Source: an uncultured Nitrospirales bacterium (lineage in GTDB: Bacteria; Nitrospirota; Nitrospiria; Nitrospirales; UBA8639). From it: a DNA stretch of 64,000 bases. The stretch covers positions 1,353,914-1,417,913 of the forward strand of contig OX638327.1 of NCBI GenBank assembly GCA_951812745.1, given 5' to 3'. Of the stretch, positions 9,799 through 24,517 are shown in pieces. The position numbers and the translations under genes are program-made. The stretch's first letter is position 1; every line of letters starts with the position of its first letter. The notes below the pieces were generated by a model. It saw only the letters and a program-made list of their open reading frames with translations, did no database searches and was not told where the DNA came from.

Positions 9799-12700
9799 CT
9801 AGAACCGCCAGTCCGTTTGCAGCCGGATTCCATGGTCGGCCTGGCCCACCGTGGTCACTTGACGCGTCCCTTCCAGGCTCAGACGCAGCCCTCCGCCCAG
9901 CTCCAATCGACTGCCCATGCGGTATCGCTGCGTGCCCCCGCCCAGCATGACCGCGCTATACGGCGTCACCAGCCCTTGGCCCGCAAACGCCGCCAGGCCA
10001 TAGCCTACCTCGGCCTCCAACCGACCGGTCGGCGCCTGCATGGCGCTCAGTCCCTGGGTTGGCCCTTGGGTTGGCCCTTGGGTCAGCCCCTGCTCCCAGA
10101 GCCGCTGCACCCCGCTGGCGGTCTGCCCATAGCTCGGCGCCAGGCTCAGCCACAGCCCCAGCCCGTCAATCCCCGGGTCCACCCGGATCAGCCCGCTGGC
10201 GCCCCATTCCTTGTAGGCTTCCTCATAGGCGGCCAGCACCCGGCCCCGGCCTTCGATGGTCAGCCCCAACGCCGGGTCCACATAGCGCAGCCCCCCGCCC
10301 AGCTCCAACCCCGTGCCCGTGGCCCCGTCCCCGCCGTCATGCCGCAGCCCCACTTCAAACGACGGCGTCAGGGAGCCGCCCGAGGCCAGGGGGCGCGCGT
10401 GGCTGCCTTCCAGGGCCAGCCGCAGCCGCTGCGCGTCGATGGTCTGTGCTGCCGGCAACGAGCCGTTGCCCTCCACGTCCATCTGGGCCAGCGAGGCCTG
10501 GGCCTTGACCCGCAGGGTCGTGGTGCCTCCGGCAATGAGCGCGTCGCCAATAGGCAGCGGGCCGCTGGCCCCCACCGAGCCTAGCCGCAAGGTCGTATCG
10601 CTGGTGTGGGTGCCGGTCTCCTCATCCGCAATCTCGATCTCCCCCCGGCCATAGCCGCCCGTGGCCCAGAGATCCAGCCCCATCGGCGACCACCAGGTTA
10701 CATACGGATGCACGCTCACCATCCGGCTGCGATAGTCCCCGCTGAACGGCTCGCCCGTGGTGCGGTCCGTATAGTCGAAGGCCCCGTCGGACCACGACAC
10801 CGCCAGCCCGGCCAAGAGGTCCGGCCGCAGGAGCGCATCCGCGCCCACCTGCCCGGTGACCAGGTCCCCGTCCCAATTCAGGGCTTGGGAGGCGCCACTG
10901 GAGAGATTGCGGTAATCGCCCTGGCCCCACAGGGTGAGACAGCCCGGGCCGGCGCCCGAGCCCTCCTTCGTGAGCCGCAGCCGGAAGGACGAGGTCCCCA
11001 GGAGCTGCTTGAGGTTAAAGCTGCCCGTATTGAGGGTCTGGGCGTTGGCCCTGAGGATCTCGGCGAGACTCGACTGGCCGCCCAACGAAGCGGTGTTGGG
11101 CTGGCTGGCGCAGGCCCCGGCCTCTTGACGGCTGGTGACGGCCGCGACGGTGACATCGGCGAGGGTCAGCGCGTGCTTGGAGAGGATCTCGTCGTTGAGG
11201 CGCCGGAAGCGCGCCCGGATCGTGTGTTCTTCATCGTCGTCCATGTTGGTGAGCGTCACGTTGTCGGGAGTGAATCCGGCGTAGTTTGGGTCGTCGCTTA
11301 TCGCCTTTGTGAACTCTACGTTGTAGTTCTGAGGGCCGTCGACCTCGGCGTCATCTACCCCCATCACGGTCACCATCTGCGGTTTGTTCCAGTTCGCCGG
11401 CGTGAAGGTGAGCGGGGCGAGCGCCGCCGCGCCGCCGCTGGTGCCCAAGCTCTCCAGCACCACCATGCCCTCGCTGGGGTCCGAGCTGCTGAGAGCGATG
11501 CTCACCGCCGTCATCGGCTGGCTCTCCAGCACCACCGTGAAGGTGGCGCTGTCTCCTGCCTCGGTGGTTGTGAGGCCGTCAGTTGGGTCAACCATCACCC
11601 CGACCGTGTCGTCGTCCACGATGTCGAGCGTCGCCGGGGTACCGGCGGTGATGCCGGTCCCGCCCGCGGTGAACGTGAGCGTCTCGTTGCCGGGACCCTC
11701 GTAAACGTTGTCTTGGATCGGCGTGACGGTCAGGTTCTTATTCCCGCTGGACTGATTGGCCGGAATGGTCAGCGACAGGGTGCCGCTGATAGTGTAGTCC
11801 GTGCCGCTGCTCGCCGAGCCTCCGCGCAGCAGGGTGACCGTGGTCGCAGTCGACGACACGATGGAGCCCTGCCAGGTGCCGGTCACCGTCACGCTGGTCT
11901 GCCCGTCCCCCTCGTTGATCGTCGCCGGACTGACCGTCAGATTCACGGTCGTCGGCGCCGTGTCGTCATCGTCTTCCGTGGCCGTGACGCTGGCGATCGA
12001 GAGGCCGGCGTAGCTGGAGTCCGTGCTGCTCGCGGTGTGCGTGAAGGTGGCCGTGCCGTTCACCGTGTCGGCGTCCTGGGCCGCAGCGATCGTCACCGTC
12101 TGCGCCGTCGACCAGTTCGTGGTGGTGAACGTGAGCGTGAGCGAAGCGCCGCCATTGACCGTCAAGTCGGTATCGCCGCCGCTGGCGCGCGCCACCGCGA
12201 TCGTCACGCTATGCGTGGGCCGGGTGTTCAGCGTCACGGTGTAGTTCGCTGAGGAGCCCTCCGCCGGGGTCACGCTCGTCGTCGAGACCGTCACACCCGC
12301 GGTATCGTCGTCCGCCTCCGTGGCCGTGACGCTGGCGATCGAGAGGCCGGCGTAGCTGGAGTCCGTGCTGCTCGCGGTGTGCGTGAAGGTGGCCGTGCCG
12401 TGCACCGCGTCGTCGTCCTGGGCCGCGGCGATCGTCACCGTCTGCGCCGTCGCCCAGTTCGTGGTGGTGAACGTGAGCGTGAGCGAAGCGCCGCCATTGA
12501 CCGTCAAGTCGGTATCGCCGCCGCTGGCGCGCGCCACCGCGATCGTCACGCTATGCGTGGGCCGGGTGTTCAGCGTCACGGTGTAGTTCGCTGAGGAGCC
12601 CTCCGCCGGGGTCACGCTCGTCGTCGAGACCGTCACACCCGCGGTATCGTCGTCCGCCTCCGTGGCCGTGACGTCGGCGATGGTGACGTTGGGATAATCG

Positions 12701-15700
12701 GTGTCCGTGTCGCTCGCGGCCGTGTGCGTGAAGGTGGCCGTGCCGTTCACCGTGTCGGCGTCCTGGGCCGCGGCGATCGTCACCGTCTGCGCCGTCGACC
12801 AGTTCGTGGTGGTGAACGTGAGCGTGAGCGAAGCGCCGCCATTGACCGTCAAGTTGGGATCGCCGCCGGCGGCGCGCGCCACCGCGATCGTCACGCTATG
12901 CGTGGGCCGGGTGTTCAGCGTCACGGTGTAGTTCGCTGAGGAGCCCTCCGCCGGGGTCACGCTCGTCGTCGAGACCGTCACGCCCGCGGTATCGTCGTCC
13001 GCCTCCGTGGCCGTGACGCTGGCGATCGAGAGGCCGGCGTAGCTGGAGTCCGTGCTGCTCGCGGTGTGCGTGAAGGTGGCCGTGCCGTTCACCGCGTCGG
13101 CGTCCTGGGCCGCGGCGATCGTCACCGTCTGCGCCGTCGACCAGTTCGTGGTGGTGAACGTGAGCGTGAGCGAAGCGCCGCCATTGACCGTCAAGTCGGG
13201 ATCGTGTTCCGTGCCGCTGGCGCGCGCCACCGCGATGGTCACGCTATGCGTGGGCCGGGTGTTCAGCTTCACGGTGTAGTTCGCTGAGGAGCCCTCCGCC
13301 GGGGTCACGCTCGTCGTCGAGACCGTCACACCCGCGGTATCGTCGTCCGCCTCCGTGGCCGTGACGCCGGCGATGGTGACGTTGGGATAATCGGTGTCCG
13401 TGTCGCTCGCGGCCGTGTGCGTGAAGGTGGCCGTGCCGTTCACCGTGTCGGCGTCCTGGGCCGCGGCGATCGTCACCGTCTGCGCCGTCGACCAGTTCGT
13501 GGTGGTGAACGTGAGCGTGAGCGAAGCGCCGCCATTGACCGTCAAGTTGGGATCGCCGCCGGCGGCGCGCGCCACCGCGATCGTCACGTCCGCGGTGGGT
13601 TCGGTGTTCAGCGTCACCGTGTAGTTGGCCGAGCCGCCCTCCGACGGGATCACGCTGGTCGGGTCGACCGTCACGCCGATGGGATCGTCGTCCGCCTCCG
13701 TGGCTGTGACGCCGGCGATGGTGACGTTGGGATAATCGGTGTCCGTGTCGCTCGCGGCCGTGTGCGTGAAGGTGGCCGTGCCGTGCACCCCGTCGTCGTC
13801 CTCAGCCGCGGCGATGGTGACCGTCTGCGGCGTGTCCCAGGTCGTGGTGGTGAACGTGAGCGTGAGCGAAGCGCCGCCATTGACCGTCAAGTCGGGATCG
13901 CCGCCGGCGGCGCGCGCCACCGCGATCGTCACGTCCGCGGTGGGCTGGGTGTTCAGCGTCACCGTGTAGCTGGCCGAGCCGTCCTCCGCCACGGTCACGC
14001 TCGTCGTCGAGACCGTCACGCCCGCGGTATCGTCGTCCGCCTCCGTGGCCGTGACGCCGGCGATGGTGACGTTGGGATAATCGGTGTCCGTGTCGCTCGC
14101 GGCCGTGTGCGTGAAGGTGGCCGTGCCGTGCACCGTGTCGTCGTCCTGGGCCGCGGCGATCGTCACCGTCTGCGCCGTCGACCAGTTCGTGGTGGTGAAC
14201 GTGAGCGTGAGCGAAGCGCCGCCATTGACCGTCAAGTCGGGATCGCCGCCGGCGGCGCGCGCCACCGCGATCGTCACGTCCGCGGTGGGTTCGGTGTTCA
14301 GCGTCACCGTGTAGTTGGCCGAGCCGCCCTCCGACGGGATCACGCTGGTCGGGTCGACCGTCACGCCGATGGGATCGTCGTCCGCCTCCGTGGCTGTGAC
14401 GCCGGCGATGGTGACGTTGGGATAATCGGTGTCCGTGTCGCTCGCGGCCGTGTGCGTGAAGGTGGCCGTGCCGTGCACCCCGTCGTCGTCCTCAGCCGCG
14501 GCGATGGTGACCGTCTGCGGCGTGTCCCAGGTCGTGGTGGTGAACGTGAGCGTGAGCGAAGCGCCGCCATTGACCGTCAAGTCGGGATCGCCGCCGGCGG
14601 CGCGCGCCACCGCGATCGTCACGTCCGCGGTGGGCTGGGTGTTCAGCGTCACCGTGTAGCTGGCCGAGCCGTCCTCCGCCACGGTCACGCTCGTCGTCGA
14701 GACCGTCACGCCCGCGGTATCGTCGTCCGCCTCCGTGGCCGTGACGCTGGCGATCGAGAGGCCGGCGTAGCTGGAGTCCGTGCTGCTCGCGGTGTGCGTG
14801 AAGGTGGCCGTGCCGTTCACCGTGTCGTCGTCCTGGGCCGCGGCGATCGTCACCGTCTGCGCCGTCGACCAGTTCGTGGTGGTGAACGTGAGCGTGAGCG
14901 AAGCGCCGCCATTGACCGTCAAGTCGGGATCGTGTTCCGTGCCGCTGGCGCGCGCCACCGCGATGGTCACGCTATGCGTGGGCCGGGTGTTCAGCTTCAC
15001 GGTGTAGTTCGCTGAGGAGCCCTCCGCCGGGGTCACGCTCGTCGTCGAGACCGTCACACCCGCGGTATCGTCGTCCGCCTCCGTGGCTGTGACGTCGGCG
15101 ATGGTGACGTTGGGATAATCGGTGTCCGTGTCGCTCGCGGCCGTGTGCGTGAAGGTGGCCGTGCCGTTCACCGTGTCGGCGTCCTGGGCCGCGGCGATCG
15201 TCACCGTCTGCGCCGTCGACCAGTTCGTGGTGGTGAACGTGAGCGTGAGCGAAGCGCCGCCATTGACCGTCAAGTTGGGATCGCCGCCGGCGGCGCGCGC
15301 CACCGCGATCGTCACGTCCGCGGTGGGTTCGGTGTTCAGCGTCACCGTGTAGTTGGCCGAGCCGCCCTCCGACGGGATCACGCTGGTCGGGTCGACCGTC
15401 ACGCCGATGGGATCGTCGTCCGCCTCCGTGGCTGTGACGCCGGCGATGGTGACGTTGGGATAATCGGTGTCCGTGTCGCTCGCGGCCGTGTGCGTGAAGG
15501 TGGCCGTGCCGTGCACCCCGTCGTCGTCCTCAGCCGCGGCGATGGTGACCGTCTGCGGCGTGTCCCAGGTCGTGGTGGTGAACGTGAGCGTGAGCGAAGC
15601 GCCGCCATTGACCGTCAAGTCGGGATCGCCGCCGGCGGCGCGCGCCACCGCGATCGTCACGTCCGCGGTGGGCTGGGTGTTCAGCGTCACCGTGTAGCTG

Positions 15701-18141
15701 GCCGAGCCGTCCTCCGCCACGGTCACGCTCGTCGTCGAGACCGTCACGCCCGCGGTATCGTCGTCCGCCTCCGTGGCCGTGACGCCGGCGATGGTGACGT
15801 TGGGATAATCGGTGTCCGTGTCGCTCGCGGCCGTGTGCGTGAAGGTGGCCGTGCCGTGCACCGTGTCGTCGTCCTGGGCCGCGGCGATCGTCACCGTCTG
15901 CGCCGTCGACCAGTTCGTGGTGGTGAACGTGAGCGTGAGCGAAGCGCCGCCATTGACCGTCAAGTCGGGATCGCCGCCGGCGGCGCGCGCCACCGCGATC
16001 GTCACGTCCGCGGTGGGTTCGGTGTTCAGCGTCACCGTGTAGTTGGCCGAGCCGCCCTCCGACGGGATCACGCTGGTCGGGTCGACCGTCACGCCGATGG
16101 GATCGTCGTCCGCCTCCGTGGCTGTGACGCCGGCGATGGTGACGTTGGGATAATCGGTGTCCGTGTCGCTCGCGGCCGTGTGCGTGAAGGTGGCCGTGCC
16201 GTGCACCCCGTCGTCGTCCTCAGCCGCGGCGATGGTGACCGTCTGCGGCGTGTCCCAGGTCGTGGTGGTGAACGTGAGCGTGAGCGAAGCGCCGCCATTG
16301 ACCGTCAAGTCGGGATCGCCGCCGGCGGCGCGCGCCACCGCGATCGTCACGTCCGCGGTGGGCTGGGTGTTCAGCGTCACCGTGTAGCTGGCCGAGCCGT
16401 CCTCCGCCACGGTCACGCTCGTCGTCGAGACCGTCACGCCCGCGGTATCGTCGTCCGCCTCCGTGGCCGTGACGCCGGCGATGGTGACGTTGGGATAATC
16501 GGTGTCCGTGTCGCTCGCGGCCGTGTGCGTGAAGGTGGCGGTGCCGTGCACCGCGTCGTCGTCCTGGGCCGCGGCGATGGTGACCGTCTGCGCCGTCGAC
16601 CAGTTCGTGGTGGTGAACGTGAGCGTGAGCGAAGCGCCGCCATTGACCGTCAAGTCGGGATCGCCGCCGGCGGCGCGCGCCACCGCGATCGTCACGTCCG
16701 CGGTGGGTTCGGTGTTCAGCGTCACCGTGTAGCTGGCCGAGCCGCCCTCCGACGGGATCACGCTGGTCGGGTCGACCGTCACGCCGATGGGATCGTCGTC
16801 CGCCTCCGTGGCTGTGACGCCGGCGATGGTGACGTTGGGATAATCGGTGTCCGTGTCGCTCGCGGCCGTGTGCGTGAAGGTGGCCGTGCCGTGCACCCCG
16901 TCGTCGTCCTCAGCCGCGGCGATGGTGACCGTCTGCGGCGTGTCCCAGGTCGTGGTGGTGAACGTGAGCGTGAGCGAAGCGCCGCCATTGACCGTCAAGT
17001 CGGGATCGCCGCCGGCGGCGCGCGCCACCGCGATCGTCACGTCCGCGGTGGGCTGGGTGTTCAGCGTCACCGTGTAGCTGGCCGAGCCGTCCTCCGCCAC
17101 GGTCACGCTCGTCGTCGAGACCGTCACGCCCGCGGTCAGGATAAGCGGCCCGCCCACGGCGGTCCGGAGGCCGTGGTAGAAGGAGGGCGGCTGCGTCACC
17201 GTCGGGCCCAGGGTGACTTCCAGCGGGGCGGTGCTTCCCGGCGTCGGGGTGGCGGTGATCACGTCGCTCGTGGTACTCCCTAACGGGACCGTGACCGAGG
17301 TGGCAGATAGCGTCCCGCCTGTCACGCTCAGGTCGGTGGTCATGGCGAAGGGTGCACCCGCGGCAACCTTGACCACAAACCTGCTCTCCCCCACCATCTT
17401 CTCCGGCTCCATGGTCAACGTAAACGGAACGCCAGGGTTATCATACAAATACAGCCTCCTCAGACTCGAGAGGCCGTCGAATATGCCGGCGGGCAGGGAA
17501 CTGAGCTGGTTGTTGTTCAACCACATAAGCCACAGACTGGTGAGGCCGTCGAACACGTCGGCGGGCAGGGTGCTGAGCCGGTTGTTGTCCAAGGATAGGA
17601 TCACCAGACTGGTGAGGCCGTCGAACACGTCGGCGGGCAGGGTGCTGAGCCGGTTGTTGTCCAAGGATAGGATCACCAGACTGGTGAGGCCGTCGAACAC
17701 GTCGGCGGGCAGGGTGCTGAGCTGGTTGTTGTCCAAGCCCAGCTCCGTCAGACTCGAGAGGTCATCGAAATCGCCAGTCTTCAAGGAGGCGATGCTCTTA
17801 CCCGAAAGACTCAGATAGGTGAGATTATTGAGCTGGGTAGCGGTGACGTTCGCGCAGTTGCTGACCCCGCTGATATAAGAGAGGATCGCGTCCTGGACCT
17901 GCTGGGTGCGGCTACAGATGTCCGCCTGGGCGTTGCCGGGGAAGACGCACAGCGCGAGGGAGGCGAGGACGAAGCCGGCCAGGACCCTGGCCAGCGGGCT
18001 TCCGCGGCCGCCCAGCCGGTTCGGACGCGGGCGCGGCCCGGGCTTCGGCGAGGTTCTCTGGGGCCTCGGCGCGCCGGGGGTCAGGGTCCTGTTGCGGTCA
18101 GGGCAACGGGATGACTCTTCTGGTTTTTCCCAAGCATCCAC
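9799..18141 (-). CDS. Giant autotransporter: leucine-rich repeats, fifteen ~115-residue beta repeats, outer-membrane barrel
   Basis: About 2,780 residues. I start at GTG 18141, which has GAGGGGG upstream; a TTG six codons earlier also fits. A long Pro/Arg-rich leader precedes a hydrophobic signal segment ending GNAQA-D (about residue 73). Residues ~110-240 are leucine-rich repeats of 24 residues (LPADVFDGLTSL core). Then come fifteen repeats of 114-116 residues (17130-11956), each opening GVTV and closing EADDD-like, rich in Thr/Val/Asp; two diverged Calx-beta-like domains follow, including one rich in acidic residues. The last ~400 residues form an autotransporter beta-barrel ending in Trp-Arg-Phe. 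Likely a surface adhesin or S-layer-like fibre exported by type Va secretion; Asp-rich loops suggest calcium binding (inference). No protease domain is evident. Confidence 0.9.
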   Translation of the reverse strand: MDAWEKPEESSRCPDRNRTLTPGAPRPQRTSPKPGPRPRPNRLGGRGSPLARVLAGFVLASLALCVFPGNAQADICSRTQQVQDAILSYISGVSNCANVTATQLNNLTYLSLSGKSIASLKTGDFDDLSSLTELGLDNNQLSTLPADVFDGLTSLVILSLDNNRLSTLPADVFDGLTSLVILSLDNNRLSTLPADVFDGLTSLWLMWLNNNQLSSLPAGIFDGLSSLRRLYLYDNPGVPFTLTMEPEKMVGESRFVVKVAAGAPFAMTTDLSVTGGTLSATSVTVPLGSTTSDVITATPTPGSTAPLEVTLGPTVTQPPSFYHGLRTAVGGPLILTAGVTVSTTSVTVAEDGSASYTVTLNTQPTADVTIAVARAAGGDPDLTVNGGASLTLTFTTTTWDTPQTVTIAAAEDDDGVHGTATFTHTAASDTDTDYPNVTIAGVTATEADDDPIGVTVDPTSVIPSEGGSASYTVTLNTEPTADVTIAVARAAGGDPDLTVNGGASLTLTFTTTNWSTAQTVTIAAAQDDDAVHGTATFTHTAASDTDTDYPNVTIAGVTATEADDDTAGVTVSTTSVTVAEDGSASYTVTLNTQPTADVTIAVARAAGGDPDLTVNGGASLTLTFTTTTWDTPQTVTIAAAEDDDGVHGTATFTHTAASDTDTDYPNVTIAGVTATEADDDPIGVTVDPTSVIPSEGGSANYTVTLNTEPTADVTIAVARAAGGDPDLTVNGGASLTLTFTTTNWSTAQTVTIAAAQDDDTVHGTATFTHTAASDTDTDYPNVTIAGVTATEADDDTAGVTVSTTSVTVAEDGSASYTVTLNTQPTADVTIAVARAAGGDPDLTVNGGASLTLTFTTTTWDTPQTVTIAAAEDDDGVHGTATFTHTAASDTDTDYPNVTIAGVTATEADDDPIGVTVDPTSVIPSEGGSANYTVTLNTEPTADVTIAVARAAGGDPNLTVNGGASLTLTFTTTNWSTAQTVTIAAAQDADTVNGTATFTHTAASDTDTDYPNVTIADVTATEADDDTAGVTVSTTSVTPAEGSSANYTVKLNTRPTHSVTIAVARASGTEHDPDLTVNGGASLTLTFTTTNWSTAQTVTIAAAQDDDTVNGTATFTHTASSTDSSYAGLSIASVTATEADDDTAGVTVSTTSVTVAEDGSASYTVTLNTQPTADVTIAVARAAGGDPDLTVNGGASLTLTFTTTTWDTPQTVTIAAAEDDDGVHGTATFTHTAASDTDTDYPNVTIAGVTATEADDDPIGVTVDPTSVIPSEGGSANYTVTLNTEPTADVTIAVARAAGGDPDLTVNGGASLTLTFTTTNWSTAQTVTIAAAQDDDTVHGTATFTHTAASDTDTDYPNVTIAGVTATEADDDTAGVTVSTTSVTVAEDGSASYTVTLNTQPTADVTIAVARAAGGDPDLTVNGGASLTLTFTTTTWDTPQTVTIAAAEDDDGVHGTATFTHTAASDTDTDYPNVTIAGVTATEADDDPIGVTVDPTSVIPSEGGSANYTVTLNTEPTADVTIAVARAAGGDPNLTVNGGASLTLTFTTTNWSTAQTVTIAAAQDADTVNGTATFTHTAASDTDTDYPNVTIAGVTATEADDDTAGVTVSTTSVTPAEGSSANYTVKLNTRPTHSVTIAVARASGTEHDPDLTVNGGASLTLTFTTTNWSTAQTVTIAAAQDADAVNGTATFTHTASSTDSSYAGLSIASVTATEADDDTAGVTVSTTSVTPAEGSSANYTVTLNTRPTHSVTIAVARAAGGDPNLTVNGGASLTLTFTTTNWSTAQTVTIAAAQDADTVNGTATFTHTAASDTDTDYPNVTIADVTATEADDDTAGVTVSTTSVTPAEGSSANYTVTLNTRPTHSVTIAVARASGGDTDLTVNGGASLTLTFTTTNWATAQTVTIAAAQDDDAVHGTATFTHTASSTDSSYAGLSIASVTATEADDDTAGVTVSTTSVTPAEGSSANYTVTLNTRPTHSVTIAVARASGGDTDLTVNGGASLTLTFTTTNWSTAQTVTIAAAQDADTVNGTATFTHTASSTDSSYAGLSIASVTATEDDDDTAPTTVNLTVSPATINEGDGQTSVTVTGTWQGSIVSSTATTVTLLRGGSASSGTDYTISGTLSLTIPANQSSGNKNLTVTPIQDNVYEGPGNETLTFTAGGTGITAGTPATLDIVDDDTVGVMVDPTDGLTTTEAGDSATFTVVLESQPMTAVSIALSSSDPSEGMVVLESLGTSGGAAALAPLTFTPANWNKPQMVTVMGVDDAEVDGPQNYNVEFTKAISDDPNYAGFTPDNVTLTNMDDDEEHTIRARFRRLNDEILSKHALTLADVTVAAVTSRQEAGACASQPNTASLGGQSSLAEILRANAQTLNTGSFNLKQLLGTSSFRLRLTKEGSGAGPGCLTLWGQGDYRNLSSGASQALNWDGDLVTGQVGADALLRPDLLAGLAVSWSDGAFDYTDRTTGEPFSGDYRSRMVSVHPYVTWWSPMGLDLWATGGYGRGEIEIADEETGTHTSDTTLRLGSVGASGPLPIGDALIAGGTTTLRVKAQASLAQMDVEGNGSLPAAQTIDAQRLRLALEGSHARPLASGGSLTPSFEVGLRHDGGDGATGTGLELGGGLRYVDPALGLTIEGRGRVLAAYEEAYKEWGASGLIRVDPGIDGLGLWLSLAPSYGQTASGVQRLWEQGLTQGPTQGPTQGLSAMQAPTGRLEAEVGYGLAAFAGQGLVTPYSAVMLGGGTQRYRMGSRLELGGGLRLSLEGTRQVTTVGQADHGIRLQTDWRF
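11956..17130 (-). repeat. Fifteen tandem 342-348 bp coding repeats
   Basis: Unit starts on the minus strand are 17130, 16785, 16440, 16095, 15750, 15405, 15060, 14712, 14367, 14022, 13677, 13332, 12984, 12639 and 12297. Three subtypes are visible by the second motif: VAEDGSA (units 1,3,5,8,10), IPSEGGSA (2,4,6,9,11) and TPAEGSSA (7,12-15). The first two alternate as a 690-bp pair. Units 3-7 and 8-12 form a near-identical 1,728-bp duplicate. Confidence 0.95.
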
Positions 18142-18266
18142 GGAACAGTTCCCCCTCAACTCTTCGTGTTGAGGTAGACTGAATGGAGCTCGAATCCGAG
18201 GGGTGGGTTAGCAACTTGGCGTGATTCGTGTCTGCCGCAGCCAAGCTATCGGCGATATGTATATGT

Positions 18267-21979: not shown

Positions 21980-22651
21980 TTACGCCTCTTTGGGTTTATA
22001 CCCCATGCGATCCAACACCTTGGTAATCCGTTTTTTCAGCGGGGCGTCGGCATCGGCCAAGGCCGTGGCCAGGGGTTCCACAGCCGGCTTGCCGATCTTC
22101 CGAAGAATCTCGGTGGCGGACTGGCGCAATTCATCTTCTTCCGACACCAACAGCGGAATGATTTTAGTGACGGAGGGCGCTCCGATTTTAATCAAGGCTT
22201 CATAGGCTCGATGCCGGACGTCACCCACTTCATCTTCCAAACATTCGACGAGGTCATCCACGGCATTGTCCGCCTTGAGCTCGCCCAACATCTCAATGGC
22301 ATATTTGCGATTGAGCCAGTGCGAATCTTTTAGGTCCATCACCGCGGCATCGACTTTGACGACGTTGGGATCTTTCGCCCGAATGCGAAACTGCTTGACC
22401 AGCCGCTTGCCTTCTTCCTCGACGATGCGGAAGGTCGCCCCGTCGCCCGGCTTGATCTTTTGCAGATCATCGAGCGCTTCCTCGGCCACGTCCAATAACA
22501 CGGTTTTTCCATCATAGGCCAACAGCTCGACTTCGAGTTGCCGGGCCTCCAGGTTGACGGTGATGACGTTTTCGGTCACCAGGTTAAAGCCATCTTTCTT
22601 GGCACTCTTGGGACTGATTTGAACAAGAGGGGTTGGAGCTGGATCTGCCAT
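21980..22651 (-). CDS. HEAT-repeat protein with N-terminal beta domain
   Basis: Last gene of a four-gene HEAT operon. Residues ~20-95 form a beta-rich domain (FNLVTENVITVNLEARQLEV..., KPGDGATFRIVEEEGKRLV) that resembles no named family to me. Residues ~100-220 contain three to four alpha-helical HEAT/PBS-lyase-type repeats (NRKYAIEMLGELKADNAVDDLVECL, VRHRAYEALIKIGAP, LRQSATEILRKIGKPAV). It has no signal peptide and starts 19 bases after the previous HEAT gene's stop. It differs from its neighbours in carrying the extra beta domain, so it may be the effector or ligand-reading member of the set (inference). It converges with ugd. Confidence 0.8.
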   Translation of the reverse strand: MADPAPTPLVQISPKSAKKDGFNLVTENVITVNLEARQLEVELLAYDGKTVLLDVAEEALDDLQKIKPGDGATFRIVEEEGKRLVKQFRIRAKDPNVVKVDAAVMDLKDSHWLNRKYAIEMLGELKADNAVDDLVECLEDEVGDVRHRAYEALIKIGAPSVTKIIPLLVSEEDELRQSATEILRKIGKPAVEPLATALADADAPLKKRITKVLDRMGYKPKEA

Positions 22652-22670
22652 ATCTACGTCTCCTTCTTTA

Positions 22671-23426
22671 TCATGATTCGGGTTTCCATCCTAAACTCGC
22701 CAATACGCCTTCGGCGGTATCGCGTACCATTTCGTTTTCATCTTCCAATAAGGCCACCACCGGCTGGATGGCGCGGGTATCGCCCAACCGGGCCAATGCT
22801 TCGGCCGCGTTCCGACGAACCAGCCAGTCCTCATCCGTCAAGGCCTCCACCAACGGAGAGAATCCCTTGGGATCCCCGATTTTTCCAAGGGCTTCGGCGG
22901 CATGCCGGCGGACGATCCAATTGGACCCTTTCAGCCCGTCGATCAAGGCATCCGTGGCTCTGGTGTCCCCGATTTTTTTCAACACGCGCGCGACGTCTTC
23001 CCGCAACATCGCATCCATCAAGCAGTCCACCAGGGCCGGCACGGCTTCGGGATCTCCGATCCGTTCCAAGGCCCAGACCGCGGCGGTTCGGACGCCCCCG
23101 TCTTTGTCTTTGAGCGCCTTCGCCAAGGGGGGCACCGCCCGCGAGCTTTTCAGTTTCCCGAGCGCGGACGCCGCCTGCTCCCGCACGGTCCATTCATCTT
23201 CTTCCAACGCTTCGATCAAAGGATCAATCGCCGATTCCCCTATCTGCACAATGGCCGAGACCGCGGCCTCACGAATCACGAGATCATCATCCTCAAACAT
23301 CTCGATGAGGCGGGGGATGGCCGAGTCGCCCATTTGCCCGAGTCCGGCCGCCGCGTAATTTTGCAGCCCTTCGTTTTCGTCGCGAAGCGCGGACAACAAC
23401 TGTTCAATGCGCTGACTCTCAGCCAT
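22671..23426 (-). CDS. HEAT-repeat protein
   Basis: 251 residues made almost entirely of ~31-residue HEAT/PBS-lyase-type repeats, about seven to eight copies, each with an LGKIGDPRAV-like turn (for example VQIGESAIDPLIEALEEDEWTVREQAASALGKL). The start ATG 23424-23426 overlaps the previous stop codon by one base (TAATG), pointing to translational coupling; an upstream in-frame start at 23450 would overlap more. Cytoplasmic, no catalytic residues. HEAT arrays serve as scaffolds; in cyanobacteria related proteins attach bilins, but no tetrapyrrole context is present here, so a lyase role is not supported. Confidence 0.85.
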   Translation of the reverse strand: MAESQRIEQLLSALRDENEGLQNYAAAGLGQMGDSAIPRLIEMFEDDDLVIREAAVSAIVQIGESAIDPLIEALEEDEWTVREQAASALGKLKSSRAVPPLAKALKDKDGGVRTAAVWALERIGDPEAVPALVDCLMDAMLREDVARVLKKIGDTRATDALIDGLKGSNWIVRRHAAEALGKIGDPKGFSPLVEALTDEDWLVRRNAAEALARLGDTRAIQPVVALLEDENEMVRDTAEGVLASLGWKPES

Positions 23427-24517
23427 TACACCTGCTCCTTCTCCGCCCACTGCGTTTCATCCATCTGCGCGGCGGCGGCTTCCAATTTGTCGATGATGAC
23501 CCCGGAGTTATACGACACCAACCCGTCACGGTCATTTTTCATTTTCTTGAACACTTCCGCATGGGGACGCAAGGCTTCCACGTCTTTGATCTTTTCCAGG
23601 GCTTCCACTGCCAATACTCGTAACGGTTTGATGGGAATCATGTCAATCAGGAGATCCACGGGTCTGGCGTCTCCAATGAGGCCCAACCCCTTCGTCGCCA
23701 GTTCTTTGACGCCCGTATCCTTATCCCGCTTGAGGCGGTCGATCAACGGCTCCACCGCCCGGACGTCTCCGATTTTTCCCAACACGTCGGCCGCGGCTTC
23801 ACGCACCACCCAATCATCGTCTTCGAGGTATTCGATTAAAATTTCGACGGTCGGCCGGCCAATCGGATGCAGTTTGTGCACGGCTTCCTGCCGCGCCCCT
23901 TCACGGAGTTCGGATTCTTCCACGTCCCGCAATTCATCCATAATCTCGTCGATGCGATCCCGAATGGCGCCGAGTTTTTTCAAAGTCTGAATCGCGATGT
24001 CACACAACGCGGGATCTCCCATCGCATCGACCAACGCATCCGCAGAGCGCGGGTCCAACAGATGATCGAGGATGTGGGCGGCGTTCACCCGCGCTTCCTC
24101 ATCCGGGTCCTTGAGCATGGCGGTCAGGGGGCCGATCGACATGGGAATGACCCCCAACAGTTTGGTGACGGAGGGCCGAAGCGTGTCATTTTTCAACAAC
24201 TCCACCAAGGCCGTTGCGGTCTCTTCATTCACGATGCCGGCCATTTGTTCCAGCGACTCCACTACGGCCTCCCGGACGCTTTCCTCCTCGCCCTGCATCA
24301 GCGTCACCAGCGGCACGCCTGCCTGAGGGTCACGGACCCGCGCCAACATTCGGGCCGCTTCAATCTGATACGCCGGTGCCCCGGTTTTCATGGCTTCGAT
24401 GACCAACGCCACGACGTTGGGGCCCCCTTTCAGACACGTGGCCGTGGCACGCATGCGGCGCCAATCTTCTTCATGGTCAAGCTCGGTCACGATGACTTCA
24501 ATGGTTTCTTTCGGCAT
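23426..24517 (-). CDS. HEAT-repeat protein
   Basis: 363 residues with about ten degenerate HEAT repeats. The first half is more diverged (MPKETIEVIVTELDHEEDWRRMRATATCLKGG), the second half contains regular units such as DDDWVVREAAADVLGKIGDVRAVEPL. A central acidic helix pair (IRDRIDEIMDELRDVEESELREG) interrupts the array, and the C-terminus ends in a non-repeat helix. It follows the first HEAT gene after 36 bases and overlaps the next by one base. It is cytoplasmic and has no enzymatic motif. Function unknown; a protein-interaction scaffold is the family expectation. Confidence 0.85.
   Translation of the reverse strand: MPKETIEVIVTELDHEEDWRRMRATATCLKGGPNVVALVIEAMKTGAPAYQIEAARMLARVRDPQAGVPLVTLMQGEEESVREAVVESLEQMAGIVNEETATALVELLKNDTLRPSVTKLLGVIPMSIGPLTAMLKDPDEEARVNAAHILDHLLDPRSADALVDAMGDPALCDIAIQTLKKLGAIRDRIDEIMDELRDVEESELREGARQEAVHKLHPIGRPTVEILIEYLEDDDWVVREAAADVLGKIGDVRAVEPLIDRLKRDKDTGVKELATKGLGLIGDARPVDLLIDMIPIKPLRVLAVEALEKIKDVEALRPHAEVFKKMKNDRDGLVSYNSGVIIDKLEAAAAQMDETQWAEKEQV

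What the first reader, a model, noticed from the sequence alone, without database searches (positions are those of the whole stretch)
9799..18141. Giant autotransporter that joins leucine-rich repeats, fifteen beta repeats and a porin-like barrel
The order signal peptide, 24-residue LRRs, fifteen 114-116-residue Asp/Thr-rich units, two Calx-beta-like domains and a C-terminal barrel ending in Trp-Arg-Phe is visible directly. LRRs are rare at the tip of type Va proteins, where passengers are usually beta helices. It suggests a calcium-stabilised rod carrying an LRR recognition head.
Basis: partly seen in the sequence, partly recalled or inferred. Interest (0 to 1): 0.7.

Follow-up and report, generated by a model that had tools for sequence, protein, structure and literature searches.

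The report
Self-secreting surface protein with recognition head
A sponge-type Nitrospira bacterium carries one gene for a giant protein that appears to export itself through the outer membrane and hold an animal-style leucine-rich-repeat domain at the end of a long chain of Calx-beta-like units; this gives a concrete, testable route by which symbionts without injection machines could show eukaryote-like proteins to their host.

Summary
Window 9799-18141 (-) is one intact gene of 2,780 aa: signal-like N-terminus, five 24-residue LRRs, a beta-rich joiner, fifteen 114-116-aa units, two Calx-beta-like domains, a linker helix and a C-terminal barrel ending WRF. The barrel alone passes Pfam's Autotransporter cut-off (E 3e-12), and its AlphaFold model matches type Va translocators best (EspP Z 19.0). 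The model has 18 strands, not the usual 12, and all are conserved in 31 relatives. The units match calcium-binding Calx-beta domains of NCX1/CALX by fold. The LRRs are of the class found in animal extracellular proteins. The barrel occurs in 14/14 genomes of this genus, 0/133 other relatives tested, and in MAGs of several other phyla that look sponge-derived. In the genus, 5 of 8 LRR_8 genes are fused to it, including the only one in this finished genome. Other copies carry FN3, Calx-beta or Cache-like passengers. Best reading: a modular outer-membrane display platform for eukaryote-like domains. Autotransporter domains on such proteins were already reported from sponge symbionts, so the kind is known; the enlarged barrel and its cross-phylum spread are new. 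Export, ligand, cleavage and calcium binding are untested.

The parts
9799..18141 (-). whole gene, 2,780 aa, GTG start, stop at 9799-9801
   Evidence: open frame; start chosen by Shine-Dalgarno spacing
18150..18156 (-). Shine-Dalgarno-like AGGGGGA, 8 nt before the GTG
   Evidence: read from the sequence
17923..18141 (-). long basic N-region plus signal peptide-like segment, ending about NAQA|DICS
   Evidence: read from the translation; no signal peptide predictor was available
17434..17922 (-). LRR head: N-cap with two Cys, five full 24-residue LRRs and a terminal half
   Evidence: PF13855 E 2.3e-30; solved LRRC15/VLR/LGR4 structures; strand/helix period of 24 in the model; 72-bp DNA repeat
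17131..17433 (-). beta-rich joining domain between LRRs and rod
   Evidence: strands in a low-confidence part of the model
11953..17130 (-). fifteen 114-116-aa Calx-beta-like units (rod)
   Evidence: two-unit model with pLDDT mostly 80-96 whose best structural matches are the NCX1/CALX CBD12 calcium-binding domains
11233..11958 (-). two further Calx-beta-like domains
   Evidence: PF03160 E 7.9e-7; second one matches the unit profile, 8e-16
11122..11232 (-). linker helix before the barrel
   Evidence: AlphaFold model, helix at model residues 2-38, pLDDT about 82-91
9802..10938 (-). 18-strand translocator barrel, C-terminal W-R-F
   Evidence: PF03797 over model residues 102-308; 18 strands, all ungapped and amphipathic in 31 sequences; EspP/Hbp/NalP best by structure

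Best explanation
The gene encodes a type Va-like autotransporter that displays an LRR recognition head on a long rod. Shown by sequence or model: LRR solenoid, 15+2 Calx-beta-like sandwiches, linker helix, and a C-terminal barrel related to autotransporter translocators but enlarged to about 18 strands; a signal peptide is seen by eye. Inferred: the protein crosses the inner membrane by Sec, BAM inserts the barrel, the passenger passes out through it and folds outside. The rod (17 domains, perhaps 70-80 nm if each spans 4-5 nm) then holds the LRR head beyond the cell's surface layers, where it binds a protein or glycoprotein of the sponge host or of neighbouring microbes. The same barrel carries FN3, Calx-beta or Cache-like passengers in other genes, so the system is a modular display platform on which eukaryote-like modules are swapped. 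Tandem duplication of nearly identical units changes rod length.
For: PF03797 match over cut-off. Structural matches with type Va translocators on top, the linker helix included: EspP Z 19.0, Hbp 17.6, NalP 17.4. LRR matches to LRRC15, LRRTM, VLR and LGR4 structures. Unit fold matches NCX1 CBD12 Z 11.6 and CALX. Domain order puts the signal first and the barrel last. Five barrel genes in this genome carry different passengers: LRR+Calx-like, Calx-beta, Cache-like, and FN3 twice. LRR-barrel fusions in the genus: G000 one, G002 three, G005 one, plus a gammaproteobacterial MAG, L048. LRR presence needs at least 4 changes on the barrel tree. Unit DNA shows recent block duplication. Related units and barrel occur together in L043, Candidatus Porisulfidus: 28 strong unit matches to the profile, pairs 53-61% identical.
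Against: No experiment shows export, surface exposure, cleavage or binding. The LRR part of the model has pLDDT of only about 60-77, because no alignment was available for it. Foldseek TM-scores of the barrel to 12-strand autotransporters are modest (0.3-0.6), and TonB-dependent receptors rank among its hits, as expected for a larger barrel but leaving room for doubt. The sponge origin of this genome is inferred from the names of related MAGs, not from a record of the genome itself.
Confidence: 0.75

Rival explanations
1. Surface adhesin for bacterium-bacterium contact or biofilm matrix, not for a host: the LRR head and rod bind neighbouring cells or matrix, as other giant Calx-beta/FN3 adhesins may.
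For: Calx-beta and FN3 rods are common in bacterial adhesins (general knowledge); sponge papers themselves leave open that such domains serve bacteria-bacteria attachment (PMC8163846).
Against: The LRRs are of the class typical of animal extracellular proteins; the barrel is confined to one genus among 147 relatives and otherwise found mostly in sponge-type MAGs.
Confidence: 0.3
2. A released effector: the passenger is cut off at the barrel and acts away from the cell.
For: Many type Va passengers are cleaved (general knowledge); the linker helix aligns with the helices of cleavable autotransporters such as EspP and Hbp.
Against: No cleavage motif was tested; a 17-domain rod is more useful as an anchored stalk (inference).
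Confidence: 0.15
3. The barrel is a porin or TonB-receptor-like channel and the N-terminal part is periplasmic, so the LRRs face inwards.
For: 18 strands is porin size; TonB receptors are among the Foldseek hits.
Against: PF03797 match over cut-off and no porin family listed; type Va translocators rank first by VIA-align, the linker helix included; no plug domain seen.
Confidence: 0.08

Closest known systems
Type Va autotransporters (EspP, Hbp, NalP, AIDA-I, EstA)
   Same: N-terminal signal-like segment, passenger, helix before the barrel, C-terminal barrel of the PF03797 family ending in an aromatic residue
   Different: about 18 strands instead of 12; passenger is an LRR head on Calx-beta-like units, not a beta helix
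Eukaryote-like proteins with autotransporter beta-domains in sponge symbionts (methane oxidisers of Hymedesmia, PMC6474228; 277cV, PMC6506613)
   Same: LRR, cadherin-like, Ig-like or FN3 domains in large ORFs, some with an autotransporter domain, in sponge symbionts
   Different: the passages read do not describe the barrel size, a T-class LRR head on a Calx-beta-like rod, or the spread of one barrel family over several phyla
LasAI/LasAII of Candidatus Liberibacter asiaticus (PMC3708911)
   Same: reported as autotransporters with repeats described as LRRs
   Different: their 44-residue repeat does not read as a canonical LRR; no signal sequence found by the authors; 10-12 predicted strands
Variable lymphocyte receptors, LRRC15, LGR4/5 (animal LRR proteins)
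   Same: 24-residue LPxxxF-type LRRs
   Different: bacterial, short (five repeats), fused to a bacterial rod and barrel

Membership tests
Type Va autotransporter | C-terminal beta-domain of the PF03797 family | tested here: met
   E 3.1e-12, 47 bits, cut-off 26, profile 1-209 of 255;
Type Va autotransporter | 12-stranded translocator barrel | tested here: not met
   model shows 18 strands, all ungapped and amphipathic in 31 sequences; Pfam matches of this family stop at or before profile position 214 of 255 while canonical ones in the genus run to 249-255. Hence 'type Va-like', not a canonical member
Type Va autotransporter | helix passing through the barrel to the passenger | tested here: met
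   helix at model residues 2-38, aligned with EspP/Hbp/NalP from residues 1-9 on
Type Va autotransporter | N-terminal signal peptide | tested here: inconclusive
   hydrophobic core and NAQA cleavage-like end read by eye; no predictor available
Type Va autotransporter | passenger exposed on the cell surface | not testable with these tools
   needs an experiment
Calx-beta domain (15 units) | Pfam PF03160 match | tested here: not met
   no listed match for units 1-2; the profile may be too narrow for them
Calx-beta domain (15 units) | Calx-beta sandwich fold | tested here: met
   NCX1 CBD12 Z 11.6 (rmsd 9.4 over two hinged domains) and CALX CBD12 E 4e-8; the neighbouring domain pair, one of which matches the unit profile, holds a PF03160 match
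Calx-beta domain (15 units) | calcium binding | not testable with these tools
   acid-rich junctions seen only
LRR protein, typical (T) class | 24-residue repeats with LxxLxLxxNxLxxLPxxxF | tested here: met
   sequence, LRR_8, animal T-class structures as best hits
LRR protein, typical (T) class | solenoid fold | tested here: inconclusive
   24-residue strand/helix period in the model, but pLDDT about 60-77

The most novel reading that the evidence does not exclude
An enlarged, 18-strand autotransporter translocator, distinct from the 12-strand type Va barrel, has become a dedicated display platform for eukaryote-like domains in sponge symbionts and has moved between several bacterial phyla within sponges; its wider pore would suit passengers made of globular domains instead of a beta helix.
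Probability: 0.35. Interest if true: 0.75.

Novelty: new variant of a known kind. Interest (0 to 1): 0.5.

Why it matters
A survey of about 1,200 sponge MAGs found eukaryote-like repeat proteins enriched but few secretion systems, and concluded that how they reach the host is largely unknown (PMC8163846). A single-gene, self-exporting LRR protein would answer this for at least one lineage and can be tested with one construct. A conserved 18-strand autotransporter barrel would also widen the known architecture of type V secretion.

Tried and rejected
Pfam and NCBIfam scans of the whole protein listed no autotransporter family; rejected as a false negative after the barrel alone matched. The teneurin, CUB and sugar-isomerase matches of the rod were set aside as composition effects. 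A three-sequence barrel profile found no PDB relative by sequence. Viral contigs held no relative of the LRR head; plasmids held only generic LRRs at under 60% identity, mostly Leptospira. The first alignment for the head model (A3) misaligned two LRR rows and was replaced by A4. The antisense ORFs under the gene are taken as mirror products of GC-rich repeats. The flanking genes (histone-deacetylase family, PLP enzyme) suggest no operon. Papers with '18-stranded' and 'autotransporter' were judged from titles and abstracts only; none looked relevant.

Full report
What is there. Window 9799-18141 on the minus strand is one open gene. Below, residue numbers follow the 2,786-aa frame that starts at 18159. 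Order: basic N-region and signal-like segment (7-79), LRR head (80-242), beta-rich joiner (243-343), fifteen units (344-2069), two Calx-beta-like domains (2068-2309), linker helix (2310-2346), barrel (2408-2786).

Repeats. TRF gives 15.0 copies of 345 bp, 90% match. Units 1, 3, 5, 8 and 10 are identical in DNA; units 3-7 recur as 8-12 with 0 to 2 differences per unit. This is recent tandem and block duplication. Between unit types, differences fall about equally on the three codon positions, which hints at weak constraint or diversification; the numbers are small. The window's genome is a single contig of 2.35 Mb, so the array is probably assembled correctly, but that was not tested on reads.

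Head. Five full 24-residue LRRs of the LPxxxF kind follow an N-cap with two cysteines. Sequence search of solved structures gives LRRC15, LRRTM, IGF-binding ALS, VLR and LGR4/5 with E-values from 1e-73; repeats inflate such values, so they show the class, not descent. A structure model without an alignment for this part shows strand and helix at a 24-residue period, pLDDT 60-77.

Rod. A two-unit model has pLDDT mostly 80-96. Best matches are the tandem calcium-binding domains of NCX1 (Z 11.6, 218 residues, rmsd 9.4, which I read as a hinge between two domains) and CALX. Pfam's Calx-beta does not list the 15 units but does match the next domain, whose partner matches the unit profile at 8e-16. 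Calcium binding is inference.

Barrel. Alone it matches PF03797 at 3e-12, over cut-off. The model (31 sequences, pLDDT 81, pTM 0.74) has a helix of 37 residues and 18 strands. All 18 strands are ungapped and amphipathic across the family. Pfam matches of this family stop at or before profile position 214 of 255, while canonical autotransporters of the same genus run to 249-255, which places the extra strands in the C-terminal half. VIA-align puts EspP, Hbp, NalP, AIDA-I and EstA on top (Z 16.5-19.0), while Foldseek also lists TonB receptors with low TM-scores. I read it as an enlarged autotransporter translocator. The strand number rests on one model and needs a structure.

Distribution. The barrel is in all 14 genomes of the genus and in none of 133 other relatives. 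In the collection of species genomes it was found at 36 loci, in records named Gammaproteobacteria, Alphaproteobacteria, Deltaproteobacteria, Binatia, Poribacteria and Nitrospirales. Bin names such as RHO and COS fit Rhopaloeides and Coscinoderma of PMC8163846, 277c is a sample of PMC6506613, and Porisulfidus reads as a sponge symbiont name; the link of the rest to sponges is my inference. That scan was pattern-based, so other habitats are not excluded. On the barrel tree the genus is not one clade (AU p 4e-6; tree), and the 862-aa paralogue (L010) sits among Binatota, Myxococcota and Pseudomonadota with its passenger conserved too. This fits transfer between phyla, though misbinned contigs and old paralogues can mimic it.

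Passengers. This genome's five barrels carry LRR+Calx-like (window), Calx-beta (3,181 aa), Cache-like (862 aa) and FN3 (3,610 and 4,541 aa frames) passengers. LRR_8 occurs in 5 of 14 genomes of the genus, in eight proteins: five end in this barrel (G000; G002 three; G005), one is cut by a contig end (G004), one is secreted-looking without barrel (G010, 678 aa) and one is an LRR insert in an O-antigen-ligase-like protein (G010). A gammaproteobacterial MAG has plant-type LRRs on the same barrel. LRR presence needs at least four changes on the tree: heads were gained or lost repeatedly.

Mechanism. Sec export, BAM-assisted barrel insertion and outward passage of the passenger follow from what is known of type Va proteins; none of it was tested here. 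I think the LRR head is held out on the rod to bind a partner in the sponge tissue (most likely) or on neighbouring cells; the head's class and the barrel's distribution favour the first, but no ligand is known.

Known context. Autotransporter domains on eukaryote-like proteins were noted in sponge methane oxidisers (PMC6474228) and in the 277cV genome (PMC6506613). PMC8163846 states that the way these proteins interact with sponge cells is largely unknown and that few lineages have secretion systems. LasAI/II were described as autotransporters with LRRs (PMC3708911), but their repeat is not canonical. So the kind is known; the enlarged barrel family, its spread and the T-class LRR head on a Calx-beta-like rod are the additions.

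Verdict. Observation confirmed; interpretation partly supported. Export, exposure, cleavage, calcium and ligand are unproven.

Noticed in passing
L101:2027-8104 (G010:C1 about 2258026-2264103): 2,026-aa ORF in another genome of the genus: O-antigen-ligase-like membrane protein (Wzy_C E 3.7e-7, just under its cut-off) with about 27 plant-type LRRs inserted between its two membrane halves.
   Followed up: partly
G010:C1 ORFs at 2109086, 2462962, 1473209, 665706: Open frames of 13,364, 12,361, 9,287 and 9,184 aa end in the same barrel family, very large for bacterial ORFs.
   Followed up: no
L010:5353-7938 (own genome about 1321352-1323937): 862-aa paralogue with a Cache-like N-terminal domain of about 400 aa, conserved with the barrel at 22 loci over Alpha-, Gamma- and Deltaproteobacteria and Binatota.
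   Followed up: partly
L048:3-4130: LRR-barrel protein whose frame runs on without a stop into a TonB-dependent-receptor-like sequence; fusion or sequence error.
   Followed up: no
window 21980-23450: Two neighbouring HEAT-repeat proteins; sponge Nitrospirota are reported rich in HEAT_2 proteins (PMC8163846).
   Followed up: no
L063 and L076: Barrels of a Poribacteria and a Nitrospirales bin from the same 'Plut' sample set are close sisters: recent transfer or misbinning.
   Followed up: no
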